NCBI GenBank assembly: GCA_903832295.1
Contig: CAILAZ010000348.1
Location: 17,137-81,136, forward strand
Length of the DNA stretch: 64,000 nucleotides
DNA from: an uncultured Acidobacteriota bacterium
Lineage (GTDB): Bacteria; Acidobacteriota; Terriglobia; Terriglobales; Acidobacteriaceae
Direction: 5' to 3'
Notes under the pieces: model-generated
The model's database searches: none
The model's input: the letters and a program-made list of their open reading frames with translations, nothing else
What the model was told of the DNA's origin: nothing
In this document: positions 9,465-60,546 of the stretch, one piece after another
Layout: every line of letters begins with the position of its first letter
Numbering within the stretch: position 1 is the stretch's first letter
Position numbers and translations under genes: made by a program

Positions 9465-10094
9465 CTAAGGCTTTCCCAGTAGGACCTCGAAGTACATCAA
9501 CTCATGCCCGCGGGAATCGGTGACGCCGGTGACGTAAAGGCGTGCTCCCTGGGCGGGATTTTCGAGATCGCCCACGTCGAAAAAGAGAAATCCCTGCTGG
9601 GAGCCGTGGGGCTCCACGGCACGAGCGGCGAAGGAAGAGTGCTCAAGGTCATCGCGGTCACGCTGGGAGAGGCCTCCGTGGGCCTTGTTGCGGCCGGGCA
9701 GAGGGATGGGGAGCTTGTCCTGGGCGCGGGAGCCAGGGGCGCGGACGGCGGTGAAGGCCCGGCGGAGATCGTCGAGGGAATAGGGATCGGACTTGGCGCG
9801 GTCGCGGGTGACGAGCTGAAAGCGGACGTTGTTGAGGACGATGGGCTGATCTCCGTCATTGGTGAAGACAACGAGAACGGGAAGGACGGAGTGCGCGAGC
9901 ATGTCGGGATGGAAGAGCGCGGCCTTTTCGGCGGTGTCATAGGCGTCAGCGCCGAGAGTGAGCTTCTCCTGGGGATGCGTGTCATGCGCGGCCATGGTGG
10001 AGGCGGGGATAAGGCGGGGCATGACGAAGTCCCTGGCAAAGGCGGCTAGGACGAGGGCGGCGAGGACGACAGCGATGGGGATCGTGCGCTTCAT
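9465..10094 (-). CDS. Conserved exported hypothetical protein
   Basis: MKRTIPIAVVLAALVLAAFARDF signal/anchor; DTHPQEKLTLGADAYDTAEKAALFHPDMLAHSVLPVLVVFTNDGDQPIVL. Confidence 0.7.
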   Translation of the reverse strand: MKRTIPIAVVLAALVLAAFARDFVMPRLIPASTMAAHDTHPQEKLTLGADAYDTAEKAALFHPDMLAHSVLPVLVVFTNDGDQPIVLNNVRFQLVTRDRAKSDPYSLDDLRRAFTAVRAPGSRAQDKLPIPLPGRNKAHGGLSQRDRDDLEHSSFAARAVEPHGSQQGFLFFDVGDLENPAQGARLYVTGVTDSRGHELMYFEVLLGKP

Positions 10095-10195
10095 GGCCGG
10101 AATTATAGGCGGGAATTGCGGGCCGGGAAGCAGGAAAGACAGAAAAGAGAGCATGGAAGATGGGGAGTGGGTCTTTTCCGCTCCGCTCCTCTACA

Positions 10196-11485
10196 ATGGC
10201 TGGCGTGTACTTCCTCTATAGCGTCATTCTCGGGTTGCTGCTTACCCTGACATTGCCCTGGTGGCTGATGCAGATGCTGCGCCTGGGAAAATATCGCGCG
10301 GGACTGATGGAGCGGCTGGGACGGGTTCCGGCGCGGCTGGGGGCCGCGGGAGAGCTGCCGGTGGCGTGGATTCACGCGGTGAGCGTGGGCGAAGTGCTGG
10401 CGGTTGTCCCGATGGTGGAGGCGATGCGCGGGCAGGGATTCCGGGTGGTGGTTTCCACGACGACGCATACGGGGCAGAAGCTGGCGCGCGGGAAATTCGG
10501 CGAGGGAGAGGTCTTTTACTTTCCGCTGGATTTCGGAGTTTGTATCAGGCCGTATCTGCGGGCGCTGAAGCCGAAGCTGGTGGTGCTGGCGGAGACCGAG
10601 TTCTGGCCAAATTTTCTGCGGCTGGCAGCAAAGAGCGGAGCGCGGCTGGCGGTGGTGAATGCAAGGATCAGCGACCGGTCGTTTCCCAGGTATCTGCGAT
10701 TCCGCGGGCTGCTGACAAAAGTGCTGGCGCCGGTCGAACTCTTCCTGGCGCAGAGCGAGCGGGACGCGGAGCGTTTGCGGGCAGTGGGGGCAGCGGCAGA
10801 TCGGGTGGAGGTGGCGGGGAATCTGAAGTTTGACGCCGCGCCTCCGGTGGAGAGCGCGGCGGTGACGAAGCTGGGCGAGCAGTTGTGGTCGTCGGGAGCC
10901 CCGGTATTGGTGGCGGGAAGCACGGTGGAGGGGGAAGAGGAGTACGTCCTGCAAGCCTTCCGCATGGTGCTGCGTGAGTATCCGTCGGCGTCGCTGGTGC
11001 TGGCGCCGCGGCACAAAGAGCGCTTTGAGGAAGTGGCCAGGGAGCTGAAGGCGAAACGATTCCGCTTTGTGCGGCGCTCGGCGGAGGACATGGCAGCGCA
11101 GGACCTGCGCGGAGCAGTGCTGCTGCTGGATACGCTGGGCGAACTGGCGTCGATCTACCGCTACTCCAATATTGCGTTTGTGGGCGGGTCGCTGGTGCCG
11201 CGCGGGGGACATAACATCCTGGAGCCGGCGTTTTTCGCGAGGGCGATTCTGACGGGGCCGTTCACGGAGAACTTCCGCGACATTCTGAACTGCTTTGAGA
11301 ATAACCGGGCAGTGGTGCGCTGCACGACGAAAGACCTGGGGATCACTTTTCTGCTGCTGCTGCGCGAGGGACAGGAGCGCGAGGCTCTGGGAGCGCGGGC
11401 GCAGCAGGTGCTGGCACAGCAACGCGGGGCAACGGCGCGGAGCGTGGCGCGAATCCTCGAACTGGCAGGGCGGGGGAGCGCATGA
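10196..11485 (+). CDS. waaA: 3-deoxy-D-manno-octulosonic acid (Kdo) transferase
   Basis: WIHAVSVGEVLAVVPMVEAM...VVSTTTHTGQKLA...FVGGSLVPRGGHNILEPAFF. Confidence 0.95.
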   Translation: MAGVYFLYSVILGLLLTLTLPWWLMQMLRLGKYRAGLMERLGRVPARLGAAGELPVAWIHAVSVGEVLAVVPMVEAMRGQGFRVVVSTTTHTGQKLARGKFGEGEVFYFPLDFGVCIRPYLRALKPKLVVLAETEFWPNFLRLAAKSGARLAVVNARISDRSFPRYLRFRGLLTKVLAPVELFLAQSERDAERLRAVGAAADRVEVAGNLKFDAAPPVESAAVTKLGEQLWSSGAPVLVAGSTVEGEEEYVLQAFRMVLREYPSASLVLAPRHKERFEEVARELKAKRFRFVRRSAEDMAAQDLRGAVLLLDTLGELASIYRYSNIAFVGGSLVPRGGHNILEPAFFARAILTGPFTENFRDILNCFENNRAVVRCTTKDLGITFLLLLREGQEREALGARAQQVLAQQRGATARSVARILELAGRGSA

Positions 11486-12423
11486 TCGACGATCCGTTCA
11501 CATGGCTGTTCGGGCAGATTGTGCGGGTACGCAACGCGCGCTATGACTCGGGGCGGGCAGAGATCCGCAGGCTGCGGCTGCCGGTGATTTCGGTGGGAAA
11601 CCTGAGCATGGGAGGGACCGGAAAGACTCCGTTTGTGCAGACGCTGGGGCGCTGGCTGAACGCGCAGGAGATTCCCTTCGACATTCTGACGCGCGGATAT
11701 GGGCGCAACACGCGCGGCGTATTGCAGGTGGATACGGCGGGCGAGGCGGCGAAGTACGGCGATGAACCTCTGCTGCTGGCAAGGACCCTGGGGGCTCCGG
11801 TGTTTGTGGGCGAGGAGCGCTACGAGGCAGGAGTAGCGGCGGAGGAATTTGCAAAAACGAGCGCACGGCCGGCGCGCGTGCACATTCTGGACGACGGATT
11901 CCAGCACCGGCGGCTGCACAGGGATTTTGACATTGTGCTGCTGGCGCACGGGGATTTGCGCGGAAGCCTGCTGCCGTTTGGAAGGCTGCGCGAGCCACTG
12001 AGATCGCTGGGAAGAGCGCACGCGGTAGTAGCTCCCGAGGATCTGGCTGAACTGCTGGCGGAGCCCAATGTGTGGCACATCCGGCGGCGGCTGGTGCTGC
12101 CCGAACCGGCGCCGACGCGACCACTGGCGTTTTGCGGCCTGGCGCATCCCAAGCAGTTCTGGGAGTCGCTGGCCGATATCGGCATCTATCCGGTAGGGAC
12201 CTTTGCATTCGGGGACCATCACAAGTACAAGTCGCTGGACATTGCGCTGGTGCAGAGGCTGGCGAAGCAATATGAGGCGAATGGGTATCTGACGACGGAG
12301 AAGGACCTGGTGAAGTTGCAGGGGATGGGGCTGGGGCCAATCATGGCTCCGTCACTGATGATTGAGCTTGAGAATGCCAACGCCCGCTTCAAAGGGATGC
12401 TGGAAGCGGCGGGGGTGAAGTAG
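11482..12423 (+). CDS. lpxK: Tetraacyldisaccharide 4'-kinase
   Basis: LPVISVGNLSMGGTGKTPFVQTLGRWL...ILDDGFQHRRLHRDFDIVLL; overlaps waaA stop by ATGA. Confidence 0.95.
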   Translation: MIDDPFTWLFGQIVRVRNARYDSGRAEIRRLRLPVISVGNLSMGGTGKTPFVQTLGRWLNAQEIPFDILTRGYGRNTRGVLQVDTAGEAAKYGDEPLLLARTLGAPVFVGEERYEAGVAAEEFAKTSARPARVHILDDGFQHRRLHRDFDIVLLAHGDLRGSLLPFGRLREPLRSLGRAHAVVAPEDLAELLAEPNVWHIRRRLVLPEPAPTRPLAFCGLAHPKQFWESLADIGIYPVGTFAFGDHHKYKSLDIALVQRLAKQYEANGYLTTEKDLVKLQGMGLGPIMAPSLMIELENANARFKGMLEAAGVK

Positions 12424-54614: not shown

Positions 54615-57600
54615 CTACTTGACGACAATAATCGTCAGCGAAGCGGTTTTGCCAGTGGAAGCAGTGCCCTGGGCCTGCGCCGTGGCGGAATAGCTGCCCG
54701 GCAAGGTCCAGTTCTTGTTCCAACTGTTGCTGCCGCATCCGATGCCGAACGCAACCAGGGTGATCACGGTAAGCAACATCGCCAGACCCCAGCGGCGCTT
54801 ACGAATGCCGAAGGGGAGAGCCAGAAGTACTCCGGCGAAGGTGATGGCCGAGGCTCCGAGCCAGCGGTTGTGCTTGAGCTGAGTAGCTACGGAGAGACTG
54901 CTGGTATAGACCGTCAAGGTGGAAGAGACCGGCTTGTTAGAGCCGTCAGGCGTAACCGAGGACGGGTTGAATACGCAGGAAGCGTTGGCCGGAAGACCGC
55001 TGCAACTGAAGCTGATCTTCAGGTTGTAGCCGTTGACCGGAAGCACGTTGAAGTACGCCGTGCCGGACTGTCCCGCGATGATGGTGAGAGTGGATGGCAC
55101 TACCTGGATGGTGTAATCGCTGACCAGGGTGGCGGCAGGAGTAGTGGAAGCAGAGGCGTTGAAGTACGTGTCTCCGCCGTAAGCCGCCGAGATGCTGTGC
55201 GAAACAGCCGTGATCAGCGCAGTTGTAGTGAAGGTCGCCTTACCGGTGGAATCCAGCGTAGCGGTTCCAAGGGTGGTGGCGCCGTCTGTGAATGTGACGG
55301 TTCCGGTAGCGATGCGTCCGGTGACAGCCGATGTGACGGTTGCGGTGTAGCTGGCGGTTGTGCCAGAGACCACAGTCGGCGTGGAGGTTGCAATGGCGGT
55401 TGTGGTGGCGGCCGTGGCAGAGACGGGCACCGCGATCAGGTAAGTGCTGGGGCTGAGCGAGGCGTTGCCGACGAACTGCGCCTGAACGCGGTAGCTTCCA
55501 GCGGCGGCGAACTGAACCAAGCCACTGAACGAGCCGTCTGCACCGACGGTAAGTGGCGCGGCGTTGAGGGTGACGGGAGCGACCGGGTTGGTGACGTTCA
55601 CCAGGTTGAGGGTTCCACCCAGGGAGGCCGATCCGGTGTTGTTAAGGCCCACATAGCCGCTGAGTTTGAGCGGGGTAGCGGGGATGGCGGTGCCGGTCTG
55701 GGCGAAGCTGTAGATGTAAGTGTCAGCCTTGCCCACGGTCAGCGAGTAGGTGTTGGATGCACTGGAGTTGAAGCTGGCGTCACCGGGATAAGCTGCAGCC
55801 AAGGTGTGGGGGCCAACAGAGAGGCCGTTGAGGGTGAAGAAGGTGCTCGACTGCTGCGAGAGACCTGCCTCACCGTATTGCAGGGTGGTGCTGCCAATGG
55901 TTGTGCCATCCACAACGATGTTGACGGAGCCGCTGGGATATCCGGTACCGGAATTTCCGTAAATGTAGATCGCCGTGGGAAGTGATTCACCGTACTGAAG
56001 CTGAACCGGATTGGCTACCTGCCATCCGCCGGTGAGAGGACCGATGAAGGTGTTGGAATTCTCCTTGGTGATGTTGACGGTGAAGGAGGGAGACTTCGAG
56101 CCCGAGTAGTTGCCGTCGCCGGAATACTGCGAGTAAACCTTCCAGGTTCCGCCGGGGAGGGTGTAGAAGTAGTTGTCAGCGCTCCCGTTGAACAGGGGGT
56201 AATTGCCACCCGAGATTACGTTGGCACCTCCAGGCTGCGGAACGGCTCCGTTGGCGATTACATACCTGGTTGTTTTGGATGCAGGGCCGGAGCCTGACGC
56301 AACGCTGCTGGAGTTGCCTTGGGCAACCGCGATCATCACGGTCTCGCCCGTGGGAGTGGGTCCTGAACCGGTGGACGACGCGACCCGAGTCTGGAAGTGA
56401 ACTCCCAAATAGCCGCTCTGGTTGCCTTGATAGCCGTGTGGGAAGGTGAAGCAATCCATGCTGGCTTTGGAACACTCGATGGTGAGGCTGTTCTGCGAGG
56501 ATGCTGCCAGCGAGATGTCAGCCCAGTGGTTGACGAGCTGGGCGACATCCACGGTGCCGATGCCGGTTGCCATGTCATAGCCGGGACCCGCGCTGTAGCC
56601 GACGGTGAATGCGCCGGTGCTGCCGGGGACCTTGTTGTCGCCATTCACGATGTCATGGAAGATGACATTGGAGTTGGGGCCGCTGGCGAGTTGATAGAGG
56701 ATGTAGTTGGCTTGACCCTGGACTGAGTTTGTCTTCTGGTTGACCAGTGCCATGACTCCGGCAAAAGACGGCGAAGCTGCCGAAGTGCCGCCGACGGAGT
56801 AGAGATAGCCGTTATAGACGATCATGTAGCCGTCATGGCCTGCCGCGGAGAGCGAGATGTCGGGAAGCATGCGCCCGATGTTGTTGGGAACGCCGTCTCC
56901 TGTCTGCCAATCCGGTTTGTACCACCACGTGCTTTCGCCGCCGCTGCCGGCCCACAGACTTACGCTGTTGGGGTCGTTGCTGCTCTCATTCCATACCTTT
57001 TCCGGGATGTAGCTGAGTACAGACTGTTTTGTGGAGGCGTTGCTGAATAGTCCCCAGTACTGGGCAGGATTGGCAGTGTCATCGAACTGGGTGCCGCCGA
57101 CGGCGACGTTGTAAGGCGTGGAAGCAATTCCATTGACGGCCACGCCGTAGCTGTCCAGAGACCCGCTGCCGGGTGCGGTGCAACCGGCGCCGCCGTTGTC
57201 TCCCGTAGAGACGTTGGCGGTAATGCCTTCGGCGGCAGCCTGCTGCCAGAGGGAGAACCAGAAGTAATTGTTACCGGCCTCGTAGTCCTCACAGAGTCCA
57301 TAGCTGGTGCTCATGACACCGGCTAGGTTGTGATCCACGATGTAGGTGGCGGATACGGCGACGCCATCGTCGAAGTTACTGGCCGATGCGACATAGGTGA
57401 CATTGGCGAGGGGAGCCACGGCTCCGGACCATTCGACATCGAGCATGGCTTCGACGATGTCGCCGGTAACTCCGGGGTCGTCGCCATTGATGATGATGGT
57501 CGGCGGATTTGCCGGCAGGCCGTAGTAGGAGCGGAAGGAGTTGACGTCGGCGACGCTGATGTTGGTGCGTCCGACGATGGCAATGGACTGTCCGGCACCG

Positions 57601-58346
57601 TTGATTCCCGCCTGGTAGAGGGGTTTCACGTCATAGATGGTGGCGAAGTCGGCCGGTGTCATGAAGTGCGCGCCGTCGCTGAAGGTCTGCATGCCCTTGA
57701 CGCCCGAGTTGGGATCAAAAAGACCCTGCTTGACGATCTTGAGATTCGCCTGCTTGGGGTGATCGGCGAGGTTGACGCCCTTGATCACCGATTGCAGGGC
57801 TGCAGGGACCTGCACGCTGGTGGAGTTGGCGATGAAGGTTTTGCCGCCGCTGGCGTAGCTGTGGAGCTGTGTGCTGAAGGCCTTTTCAACCTGGCCGACG
57901 CTGCCGCTGAAGGTGATGAAGCGGCGGCTCTGGGAAACTTCATGCACGGTGAGGCCCTGGCTGATGAGCCAGTTCTTGACCTGGGTCGCATCGGATACGG
58001 AGACGCCAAACTGGTCTCCGAACTGGGCCGGGGTCAACCACTTGTGGAACTGCGCGGACTTGGGATCATGCTGCGCCTGGATGAGGGCGGCGGCTGCCTG
58101 GTCCTGTGCGTCGGTAGGCGCAAGGGTAAGCATGATGCGTCCGAGATTCTGGCTTGCGTTCAACCGGCCAGTGTCAACACTCCTGACGGCGGCGGAGGAA
58201 GCAGAGTGATCGATCGCTACCTTCTGGGTGAGGTCTGGGCTTGCTGGAACGCGGTTCTGGACGGCAAAAGCAGAAACTGCAAATACCGCGAACAGCAGAA
58301 CGATGATGCCCAAAGTGCGGACAAACGGTGTGTGGCATTTCTTCAT
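54615..58346 (-). CDS. Secreted S53 family (sedolisin/kumamolisin-type) peptidase with Ig-like repeats
   Basis: Pro-kumamolisin propeptide; EAMLD (Glu/Asp) and GGTSAASPSFAG catalytic Ser motifs; C-terminal Ig-like 3 repeats and TM. Confidence 0.92.
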   Translation of the reverse strand: MKKCHTPFVRTLGIIVLLFAVFAVSAFAVQNRVPASPDLTQKVAIDHSASSAAVRSVDTGRLNASQNLGRIMLTLAPTDAQDQAAAALIQAQHDPKSAQFHKWLTPAQFGDQFGVSVSDATQVKNWLISQGLTVHEVSQSRRFITFSGSVGQVEKAFSTQLHSYASGGKTFIANSTSVQVPAALQSVIKGVNLADHPKQANLKIVKQGLFDPNSGVKGMQTFSDGAHFMTPADFATIYDVKPLYQAGINGAGQSIAIVGRTNISVADVNSFRSYYGLPANPPTIIINGDDPGVTGDIVEAMLDVEWSGAVAPLANVTYVASASNFDDGVAVSATYIVDHNLAGVMSTSYGLCEDYEAGNNYFWFSLWQQAAAEGITANVSTGDNGGAGCTAPGSGSLDSYGVAVNGIASTPYNVAVGGTQFDDTANPAQYWGLFSNASTKQSVLSYIPEKVWNESSNDPNSVSLWAGSGGESTWWYKPDWQTGDGVPNNIGRMLPDISLSAAGHDGYMIVYNGYLYSVGGTSAASPSFAGVMALVNQKTNSVQGQANYILYQLASGPNSNVIFHDIVNGDNKVPGSTGAFTVGYSAGPGYDMATGIGTVDVAQLVNHWADISLAASSQNSLTIECSKASMDCFTFPHGYQGNQSGYLGVHFQTRVASSTGSGPTPTGETVMIAVAQGNSSSVASGSGPASKTTRYVIANGAVPQPGGANVISGGNYPLFNGSADNYFYTLPGGTWKVYSQYSGDGNYSGSKSPSFTVNITKENSNTFIGPLTGGWQVANPVQLQYGESLPTAIYIYGNSGTGYPSGSVNIVVDGTTIGSTTLQYGEAGLSQQSSTFFTLNGLSVGPHTLAAAYPGDASFNSSASNTYSLTVGKADTYIYSFAQTGTAIPATPLKLSGYVGLNNTGSASLGGTLNLVNVTNPVAPVTLNAAPLTVGADGSFSGLVQFAAAGSYRVQAQFVGNASLSPSTYLIAVPVSATAATTTAIATSTPTVVSGTTASYTATVTSAVTGRIATGTVTFTDGATTLGTATLDSTGKATFTTTALITAVSHSISAAYGGDTYFNASASTTPAATLVSDYTIQVVPSTLTIIAGQSGTAYFNVLPVNGYNLKISFSCSGLPANASCVFNPSSVTPDGSNKPVSSTLTVYTSSLSVATQLKHNRWLGASAITFAGVLLALPFGIRKRRWGLAMLLTVITLVAFGIGCGSNSWNKNWTLPGSYSATAQAQGTASTGKTASLTIIVVK

Positions 58347-58693
58347 AGGTGAGTCTCCCTCGAGATTCTCCAAAACGGCAACGGTCCCCATGCAAGCGGA
58401 CGACGATCTGGATCAGCACGGAACACGCATCTGAATATGCTCGAGTCTTCTCTTCACAAAAGGGAAGTTGAGACATTTTCAGTCAAGGCCCGGCGACTGA
58501 TTGAACGCAGTGGGACTTCAAAAACGCAGGACAGAGTAGCTGGTAGTTCATTGTAGATGACGAAAGGGAATGGTCAATAGAAAAGTAGCAGGATTCGACC
58601 ACCGATTGGCTGGTTTGGCGACGATTCAAGGTGCCCGGTGTGGAGCACTCTCCATGTCAACGACAAAAGTTGCGTTGGGTACAATGGAGCGCG

Positions 58694-60463
58694 ATGCGAG
58701 TGAGTTTTGTGGTAGCTCCGGTGCTGTCAGTTGCGCGGCCCGCCCTGGGCGTATCCCTGCTGAAGGCATGCCTCGCAAGGGCGGGCGTCGAATCGCGCAT
58801 ACACTACGCAAACCTCTCTTTTGCAGCGCAGGAGGGGCTGGAGTGGAATGAGTTTCTGGCCGAGCGAATTCCGGCGGACCTGCTGGCTGGAGAATGGATA
58901 TTCTCGCGCACCAACAGCGTAAGGAAGTATGCGGAAAAGCTGAGGCAAACAGTTGATGCAGAGATCGTGGATCGCCTCATGGAGACACGTCGACGGGCCG
59001 GGGAGTTTCTCGCCAGGGAAGTGGAGAAGATCGCCGCCTACGGCGCAGACATCGTAGGCTTCTCCTCGAGCTTTCAGCAGAGCTGCGCATCACTGGCAAT
59101 GGCTTCCATGCTGAAGAGGATGCGTCCGGCGGTGGTCACCTGCTTTGGCGGCGCGAATTGCGAGTCGCCGATGGGAGAGGCTTTGCGGCGTTGTTATCCG
59201 CAGATTGATCATGTGTTTTCCGGCGAAGCGGAAGAGACATTTGTAGCGTTTGTGACGAGCTATGCGCGCGGCGCTGTGCGGCCAACGCTGAACGTGATGG
59301 ACTCGACGCAGAGAGCAAACCACTTTGTCGATTTGGATCAACAGCCGGTTCCTGATTTCTCTGACTATTTTGAGGGGTTGCGGCAAGCGGAAGCGCTTGC
59401 GCCGGTAGAGGTGTCTCTGCCGTTTGAGGCCTCGCGCGGTTGCTGGTGGGGGGCAAAACATCACTGCACCTTTTGCGGACTCAATGGCGGGGCGCTGACG
59501 TACCGATCAAAATCAGCGGGCAAGGTGCTGGAGGAACTGCGGATACTCCGGGAGAGATGGGGAATCGACCGCTTTTCCGCCTCCGACAACATCCTGAACC
59601 CAGGGCATATTCCAGACGTGCTTGCGGAGCTGGACGCGCAAGGCTCGAGCCTGGAATTGTTCTTTGAAATCAAGGCAAACACGACGCTCGAACAGTTAAG
59701 GACCATGGCGCGCGCAGGAGTGAGCTGGGTGCAGCCGGGCATTGAGAGCCTGGACGATGAATTGCTGCAGAAGCTGGAAAAGGGCGTGTCTCTGCTGCTG
59801 AATCTGCGGCTGCTGCGCTCGTGTGCGGAGGTGGGGATGCGCGCGGGATGGAACCTTCTGACAGGAATTCCAGGAGAGAGCGATGAGCAGTACGAGAACA
59901 TTGTGGCGCTGATTCCGAAGATCGAACACCTTGAGCCTCCCGACCTCTGCGTACCCATTCGCATTGATCGATATAGTCCGTACTTCGAGAGGCCGGAAGA
60001 GTTCGGATTTCGCGGGATGAAGCCAGCCTGGGCGTACGAGCATATCTTCGATGTAGCGGAGGCGGAGCGCGTGAAACTGGCGTACTTCTTCCACGCGGAA
60101 TGCGGTGCCACGGCGGGCGCGGAGGTGCTTGCGCGACTGAAGGCCGGAGTGGACGAGTGGCGCGGGCGCTTTCACCAGGCGTCTGCTCCGACGCTGTTTG
60201 CGGCAAAGGTTCAACAGGGAACGCTGGTGGTGGACACGAGAAGCTGTGCAAAGCAGCGGATGCGAATGCTGTCTGCATGTGAAGCAGACCTGCTGGCAAC
60301 CCTGCGTGATCCGGTGCGATATGAGTTCGCGGAAAAGCAGCTTGGCGCAAAGTACGACGCCGGCTCGCTACGCGCCGCATACGCAGAGCTGCTGGGCGCA
60401 GCGTACGTGGTGGCCAGTGGAGGCAAGGCGCTGAGCGTGGTGACGGAGAAGATTGCGAGCTGA
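58694..60463 (+). CDS. B12-binding radical SAM protein, RiPP-maturation (rSAM C-methyltransferase, TIGR03975-like) family
   Basis: N-term B12-binding-like region; ASRGCWWGAKHHCTFCGLNGGALTYRSKS (CX7CX2C); GIESLDDELLQKLEKGVSLLLNLRLLRSCAEVGMRAGWNLLTGIPGESDEQY. Confidence 0.88.
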   Translation: MRVSFVVAPVLSVARPALGVSLLKACLARAGVESRIHYANLSFAAQEGLEWNEFLAERIPADLLAGEWIFSRTNSVRKYAEKLRQTVDAEIVDRLMETRRRAGEFLAREVEKIAAYGADIVGFSSSFQQSCASLAMASMLKRMRPAVVTCFGGANCESPMGEALRRCYPQIDHVFSGEAEETFVAFVTSYARGAVRPTLNVMDSTQRANHFVDLDQQPVPDFSDYFEGLRQAEALAPVEVSLPFEASRGCWWGAKHHCTFCGLNGGALTYRSKSAGKVLEELRILRERWGIDRFSASDNILNPGHIPDVLAELDAQGSSLELFFEIKANTTLEQLRTMARAGVSWVQPGIESLDDELLQKLEKGVSLLLNLRLLRSCAEVGMRAGWNLLTGIPGESDEQYENIVALIPKIEHLEPPDLCVPIRIDRYSPYFERPEEFGFRGMKPAWAYEHIFDVAEAERVKLAYFFHAECGATAGAEVLARLKAGVDEWRGRFHQASAPTLFAAKVQQGTLVVDTRSCAKQRMRMLSACEADLLATLRDPVRYEFAEKQLGAKYDAGSLRAAYAELLGAAYVVASGGKALSVVTEKIAS

Positions 60464-60469
60464 GAAAAA

Positions 60470-60546
60470 TGGTCGGGATGGGCAGATTTGAACTGCCGAC
60501 CCCTCGCACCCCAAGCGAGTGCTCTACCAGGCTGAGCCACATCCCG
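60470..60546 (-). tRNA. tRNA-Pro (anticodon GGG), CCA encoded
   Basis: CGGGATGTGGCTCAGCCTGGTAGAGCACTCGCTTGGGGTGCGAGGGGTCGGCAGTTCAAATCTGCCCATCCCGACCA; 7-bp acceptor stem, loop TTGGGGT. Confidence 0.95.

What the first reader, a model, noticed from the sequence alone, without database searches (positions are those of the whole stretch)
58694..60463. Orphan RiPP-type B12 radical SAM maturase with CX7CX2C cluster motif
The sequence shows 'GCWWGAKHHCTFCGLNG', a long-spaced CX7CX2C motif instead of the canonical CX3CX2C. An N-terminal region resembling a B12-binding domain precedes it. This matches the 'RiPP maturation radical SAM C-methyltransferase' family (TIGR03975). No other recognisable RiPP gene (precursor, transporter, LanM/YcaO) lies within several kb on either side. 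The substrate is therefore unknown and may be encoded elsewhere or by a very small local ORF.
Basis: partly seen in the sequence, partly recalled or inferred. Interest (0 to 1): 0.75.

Follow-up and report, generated by a model that had tools for sequence, protein, structure and literature searches.

The report
Lone B12 radical peptide-methylating enzyme gene
This is an intact, ordinary member of a known family of vitamin-B12-dependent enzymes that add methyl groups to small peptides, unusual only because it sits alone beside a tRNA gene, in a genome where no partner peptide for it could be found.

Summary
58694-60463 (+) encodes a 589-aa B12-binding radical SAM protein that scores 562.7 bits against TIGR03975 (cut-off 281.85), far from the BchE and hopanoid families. 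The CX7CX2C motif is not an oddity: 103 of 104 sequences compared carry it (the exception is a 211-aa fragment), and it is the published signature of PoyB/PoyC. The window protein keeps 62 of 64 near-invariant family positions, so it looks functional. AlphaFold gives a B12-radical-SAM methylase fold (closest OxsB, CysS, TokK, TsrM) plus a C-terminal winged helix resembling RiPP leader-binding (RRE) domains.

In many relatives a short precursor gene lies directly upstream, and precursor type follows the enzyme tree. The window gene is sister to gammaproteobacterial enzymes that have one. Here there is none: the neighbours are a divergent S53 peptidase and, 6 bp downstream, tRNA-Pro. Nearby small ORFs look non-coding, and six precursor or YcaO searches of the 94.6%-complete genome found nothing. 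Congeners lack the gene; the same tRNA-Pro is an integration site in one of them. Best reading: a laterally acquired peptide C-methyltransferase stranded from, or working in trans on, an unidentified peptide. New member of a known kind.

The parts
58694..60463 (+). TIGR03975 B12-dependent radical SAM peptide C-methyltransferase, 589 aa
   Evidence: TIGR03975 562.7 bits; 62 of 64 near-invariant family columns kept; AlphaFold pLDDT 92.4, PDB fold matches OxsB/CysS/TokK/TsrM
59021..59251 (+). B12-binding domain (residues 110-186)
   Evidence: Pfam PF02310, 36.6 bits
59432..59911 (+). Radical SAM domain (residues 247-406)
   Evidence: Pfam PF04055, 64.6 bits
59441..59476 (+). CX7CX2C [4Fe-4S]-binding motif (C250, C258, C261)
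   Evidence: sequence; same motif in 103 of 104 sequences compared
60170..60460 (+). C-terminal winged-helix domain, RRE/PqqD-like (residues 493-589)
   Evidence: AlphaFold pLDDT 93.7, strand-strand-strand-helix-helix-helix-strand-strand; PDB matches include RREs 5wgg, 6jx3, 5v1u but at weak E-values
58392..58693 (.). intergenic stretch to the divergent S53 gene; no credible precursor ORF
   Evidence: small ORFs have negative codon log-odds; no family match
54615..58391 (-). divergent S53 (pro-kumamolisin) peptidase with Ig-like repeats; context, probably unrelated
   Evidence: Pfam Pro-kuma_activ 108.5 bits, Big_3_5; one of 8 in the genome; not near any homologue examined
60470..60546 (-). 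tRNA-Pro(GGG), 3' end 6 bp from the stop codon; end of conserved synteny with congeners
   Evidence: ARAGORN; congener comparison

Best explanation
The gene encodes an intact PoyC-type peptide C-methyltransferase of the TIGR03975 family. Shown here: family membership, B12 and radical SAM domains, intact motif, RRE-like C-terminal fold, solitary position, no ortholog in the congeners searched. Inferred mechanism: the CX7CX2C [4Fe-4S] cluster cleaves SAM to a 5'-deoxyadenosyl radical, which takes a hydrogen from an sp3 carbon (in PoyC a Cbeta) of a residue in a leader-bearing peptide; methyl-cobalamin delivers the methyl group and is recharged by a second SAM; the C-terminal winged helix holds the leader. 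Inferred history: the gene was acquired laterally, apart from its cluster, at a variable site beside tRNA-Pro, and its substrate is an unlinked peptide not recognised by current leader models.
For: TIGR03975 562.7 bits over the whole length. All full-length homologues share CX7CX2C and the window keeps 62 of 64 near-invariant columns. Fold matches are B12-radical SAM enzymes, mostly methylases. Many relatives carry precursors directly upstream and precursor type tracks the tree with 5 changes, the minimum; the sister pair L034/L035 (SH-aLRT 99) has a 79-aa precursor with two further radical SAM genes. C-terminal RRE-like fold, with C-terminal RREs reported for proteusins (PMC7470986). PoyC biochemistry and motif: PMC5682303, PMC11285071. 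No ortholog in the congeners and family members searched; synteny ends at the tRNA, which is an integration site in a congener. Solo members with 81-89% DNA identity recur in Alphaproteobacteria.
Against: No substrate was found. RRE fold matches are weak (best RRE E 0.017) and mixed with ordinary winged helices, and Pfam PqqD appears only at E 0.024 in one homologue. B12-radical SAM enzymes in RiPP pathways can also cross-link rather than methylate (PbsB, PMC12257519). No second attachment repeat or integrase was found for the window gene, and lateral transfer rests on a quick tree with a long end branch (0.82).
Confidence: 0.62

Rival explanations
1. Relic: the gene is what remains of a laterally acquired RiPP cluster after the precursor and partner genes were lost; the enzyme is still intact but has no substrate in this cell.
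For: No NHLP leader, no Nif11 leader above cut-off, none of three precursor families of relatives and no YcaO in the genome; sister genes sit in a cluster with a precursor and two more radical SAM genes; slightly low codon score, 0.123 per codon.
Against: The reading frame is intact and 62 of 64 near-invariant family residues are kept, which argues against long loss of function. Solo members are maintained elsewhere.
Confidence: 0.25
2. The precursor is a local, unrecognised small ORF in the 302-bp gap upstream, or overlaps the enzyme start (58570-58851).
For: In many relatives the precursor lies directly upstream on the same strand. An ORF of 93 aa and one of 39 aa exist there.
Against: Codon log-odds are -0.25 and -0.27 per codon, against +0.12 for the enzyme; the sequences resemble no leader and match no NCBIfam model.
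Confidence: 0.05
3. The enzyme modifies the divergent S53 peptidase, for example its propeptide, as part of a peptidase-maturation pair.
For: A related module elsewhere has an S8 peptidase, a TIGR03975 enzyme and a small protein that aligns with the S53 prodomain, apparently fused to the enzyme in L052. The genome has only 8 S53 prodomains, so adjacency by chance is below about 1%, though judged after the fact.
Against: No S53 gene lies near any of the roughly 100 homologues examined. The window enzyme does not belong to the S8-linked clade. Transcription is divergent, and the S53 protein has a signal-like N-terminus and is probably exported.
Confidence: 0.03
4. It is a radical SAM peptide enzyme of another chemistry (for example C-C cross-linking, as PbsB) rather than a methyltransferase.
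For: A B12-radical SAM enzyme of a RiPP pathway cross-links ortho-tyrosines (PMC12257519). Methylation was not tested here.
Against: TIGR03975 is the C-methyltransferase family and PoyB/PoyC share the motif. Whether PbsB belongs to TIGR03975 was not checked.
Confidence: 0.05

Closest known systems
PoyC / PoyB (polytheonamide, proteusin B12-radical SAM C-methyltransferases)
   Same: CX7CX2C motif and B12-radical SAM architecture as described in PMC5682303 and PMC11285071
   Different: Poy enzymes sit in a proteusin cluster with precursor and epimerase; the window gene has no cluster.
TIGR03975 enzymes of Marinicella sediminis (L035) and an Alcanivoracaceae MAG (L034)
   Same: closest relatives found, 40-41% identical, sister in the tree with SH-aLRT 99
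   Different: they stand behind a 79-aa precursor gene, an epimerase-like radical SAM gene and a SPASM-type radical SAM gene; none of these lies at the window locus, and the precursor type was not found in the genome
Solo TIGR03975 genes of Sphingomonas and Rhizomicrobium (L096, L104, L112)
   Same: stand-alone gene with unrelated flanks
   Different: a separate branch of the tree
DUF5825-partnered B12-radical SAM enzymes (clavusporin type; L066, L101)
   Same: same family, peptide C-methylation reported for a homologous pair (PMC12257519)
   Different: they carry a DUF5825 partner gene, absent beside the window gene

Membership tests
TIGR03975 (RiPP maturation radical SAM C-methyltransferase) | full-length match above the curated cut-off | tested here: met
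   562.7 bits against 281.85, profile positions 1-604 of 606
TIGR03975 (RiPP maturation radical SAM C-methyltransferase) | CX7CX2C motif within CWWGAKHHCTFCGLN | tested here: met
TIGR03975 (RiPP maturation radical SAM C-methyltransferase) | B12-binding domain ahead of the radical SAM domain | tested here: met
   fold matches
TIGR03975 (RiPP maturation radical SAM C-methyltransferase) | methylates carbon of a peptide | not testable with these tools
   needs an in vitro assay
RiPP biosynthetic gene cluster | precursor peptide gene near the enzyme | tested here: not met
   known precursor families absent from the genome
RRE (PqqD-like leader-binding) domain | three strands then three helices, winged helix, similar to solved RREs | tested here: inconclusive
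   right order of elements; RRE hits 5wgg 0.017, 6jx3 0.047, 5v1u 0.21 among other winged helices; no PqqD Pfam match in the window protein
BchE / hopanoid B12-radical SAM families | match above HpnJ, HpnR or BchE cut-off | tested here: not met
   53.8, 50.2 and 35.8 bits against 577.6, 650 and 481.35
tRNA-integrated mobile island | integrase and duplicated tRNA 3' end | tested here: not met
   no second copy of the tRNA end in the genome at up to 3 mismatches and no integrase among the window genes scanned, but the same tRNA carries such an island in congener G001

The most novel reading that the evidence does not exclude
Some TIGR03975 enzymes, this one among them, are stand-alone peptide or protein C-methyltransferases that act in trans on an ordinary cellular protein or an entirely new class of precursor, not on a RiPP cluster peptide.
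Probability: 0.12. Interest if true: 0.65.

Novelty: new member of a known kind. Interest (0 to 1): 0.3.

Why it matters
It is a clean, confidently modelled test case for orphan B12-radical SAM peptide enzymes: it shows that the family can occur without its cluster and that a motif which looks odd is the family standard. If a trans substrate exists, finding it would reveal a precursor class that leader-based genome mining misses.

Tried and rejected
Motif as anomaly: rejected, it is present in 103 of 104 sequences compared, the exception being a fragment. BchE or hopanoid type: rejected. Precursor by NHLP, Nif11 or the three precursor families of relatives: none in the genome; of the three relatives' models only the L034/L035 one (A3) had a positive control, E about 1e-50 in the source genomes, while the A1 and A2 searches were run without one. 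YcaO partner: none. S53 peptidase as conserved partner: not near other homologues. Island with attachment repeats: no repeat found for the window. PDB sequence search: nothing at E 0.01. The mechanical count of isolated homologues, 21 of 86, was set aside because several of the 21 do have precursors that the simple gene caller missed.

Full report
What is there. The ORF 58694-60463 on the + strand codes for 589 aa without a stop. It carries a B12-binding domain (110-186) and a radical SAM domain (247-406) and matches NCBIfam TIGR03975, 'RiPP maturation radical SAM C-methyltransferase', end to end with 562.7 bits against a cut-off of 281.85; the next families (HpnJ, HpnR, BchE and others) are at 54 bits or less and far below their cut-offs. 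It is the only member over the cut-off in its genome.

The motif. CX7CX2C is unusual for radical SAM proteins at large but normal for this family. Of 104 sequences compared (the window and 103 homologues), 103 have it and the exception is a 211-aa fragment. Of 64 columns that are at least 93% invariant in the homologues, the window protein keeps 62, the two departures being L for M at 268 and Y for F at 427. Reviews describe the same motif for PoyB, PoyC and the bottromycin methyltransferases (PMC5682303; PMC11285071). The protein is therefore very probably a working enzyme of known type.

Structure. AlphaFold on an alignment of 47 family members gives mean pLDDT 92.4. The closest solved folds are OxsB, CysS, TokK and TsrM, all cobalamin-dependent radical SAM enzymes. 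The last 97 residues, folded alone at pLDDT 93.7, form strand-strand-strand-helix-helix-helix-strand-strand. Among the best PDB matches are the sactipeptide enzyme entry 5wgg (E 0.017; from my own knowledge this is CteB and the match would be its RRE), a lasso-peptide B1 protein with bound leader (6jx3, E 0.047) and TbiB1 (5v1u, E 0.21), mixed with other winged helices. I read this as an RRE-like leader-binding domain, not proven. The RRE-Finder paper notes C-terminal RRE fusions in proteusins (PMC7470986).

Relatives and their substrates. A scan of one genome per species gave 79 loci at 32-42% identity. Their neighbourhoods hold several unrelated precursor types directly upstream on the same strand: a Cys-rich type with a GGGGF tail, found with YcaO, ThiF-like and nitroreductase genes (10 loci), an NHLP-like type mostly ending in DGVIRPRC (8 loci), and others. 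Precursor type follows the enzyme tree perfectly (5 changes, the minimum possible). The window enzyme is sister, with SH-aLRT 99, to those of Marinicella sediminis (L035) and an Alcanivoracaceae MAG (L034), although its end branch is long (0.82). These two have a 79-aa precursor, a YydG-epimerase-like radical SAM protein (104 bits, below the 300 cut-off) and a SPASM-type radical SAM protein. This is epimerase plus C-methyltransferase logic, as in polytheonamide.

The orphan state. At the window locus the gene has a divergent S53 peptidase upstream (54615-58391, -) and tRNA-Pro(GGG) 6 bp downstream (60470-60546, -), then the Fe(2+)-trafficking gene and RNase R. Small ORFs in the upstream gap have negative codon scores and match no family. 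In the genome (94.6% complete) there is no NHLP leader, no Nif11 leader above cut-off, none of the Cys-rich or DGVIRPRC types (run without a positive control), no L034/L035-type precursor although the same model finds its controls at 1e-50, and no YcaO.

How it got there. None of 60 relatives, including three congeners, has an ortholog (best 64 bits). In 399 genomes of the class 17 have a member over the cut-off, scattered, and those homologues are no closer than about 30-37%. Synteny of RNase R, the trafficking gene and tRNA-Pro is kept in the congeners and stops at the tRNA 3' end, beyond which each genome differs. In congener G001 the same tRNA carries an integrated element of about 5 kb between 57-bp exact repeats (L158 4302-4358 and 9391-9447) with a phage-type integrase, a C5-cytosine methylase and a NotI-like endonuclease. 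The window itself shows no second repeat. Lateral acquisition at a variable tRNA site is the simplest account, but the vehicle is not visible.

Function. Following PoyC (PMC5682303), the expected reaction is radical C-methylation at an sp3 carbon of a peptide residue using SAM and methyl-cobalamin. Chemistry was not tested, and B12-radical SAM enzymes of RiPP pathways can do other things: PbsB cross-links ortho-tyrosines (PMC12257519). Whether the enzyme works on an unlinked peptide or has lost its substrate cannot be decided here. The intact residues and the recurrence of solo genes elsewhere (L096, L104, L112: 81-89% DNA identity over the gene only, flanks unrelated) make me lean to a working enzyme.

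Verdict. It is a new member of a known kind, in an orphan setting that is real but not unique. One sponge-microbiome study left out its antiSMASH TIGR03975 clusters as likely false positives after manual inspection (PMC9426513), which fits the view that isolated members are not rare.

Noticed in passing
L171 1482-5876, L165 7068-11299, L046 883-4950, L047 8163-12189, L052 8385-12004: A recurring module of S8 peptidase, TIGR03975 enzyme and a small protein of about 110-150 aa that aligns with the S53 propeptide domain (hhalign P 2.5e-4, probability 43%). In L052 a similar segment appears fused to the C-terminus of the enzyme. It has no Pfam name and no ordinary precursor was seen.
   Followed up: partly
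L158 4302-9447 (congener G001): Integrated element at the tRNA-Pro beside which the window gene lies: 57-bp direct repeats, phage integrase, C5-cytosine methylase, NotI-like endonuclease.
   Followed up: yes
L096, L104, L112 (match about 9912-11740 in each): Solo TIGR03975 genes in Alphaproteobacteria with 81-89% DNA identity limited to the gene and unrelated flanks.
   Followed up: partly
L044 3351-8970, L043 9577-14257 and eight similar loci: Cys-rich precursors with a GGGGF tail followed by a TIGR03975 enzyme, with ThiF-like, YcaO and nitroreductase genes (confirmed in L044; YcaO also in L043), across Paracoccus, Acidobacteriota and Solirubrobacter; the L044 precursor has no NCBIfam model.
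   Followed up: partly
L181 4700-12556; L174 4576-14704: Several TIGR03975 copies in one genome neighbourhood: four in a row in G242, three in G417.
   Followed up: no
L034 1949-7956, L035 5905-11881: Cluster of SPASM-type radical SAM, 79-aa precursor, epimerase-like radical SAM and C-methyltransferase in Gammaproteobacteria.
   Followed up: partly
window 54615-58391: S53 peptidase of 1258 aa with Ig-like repeats, one of 8 S53 prodomain genes in the genome.
   Followed up: partly
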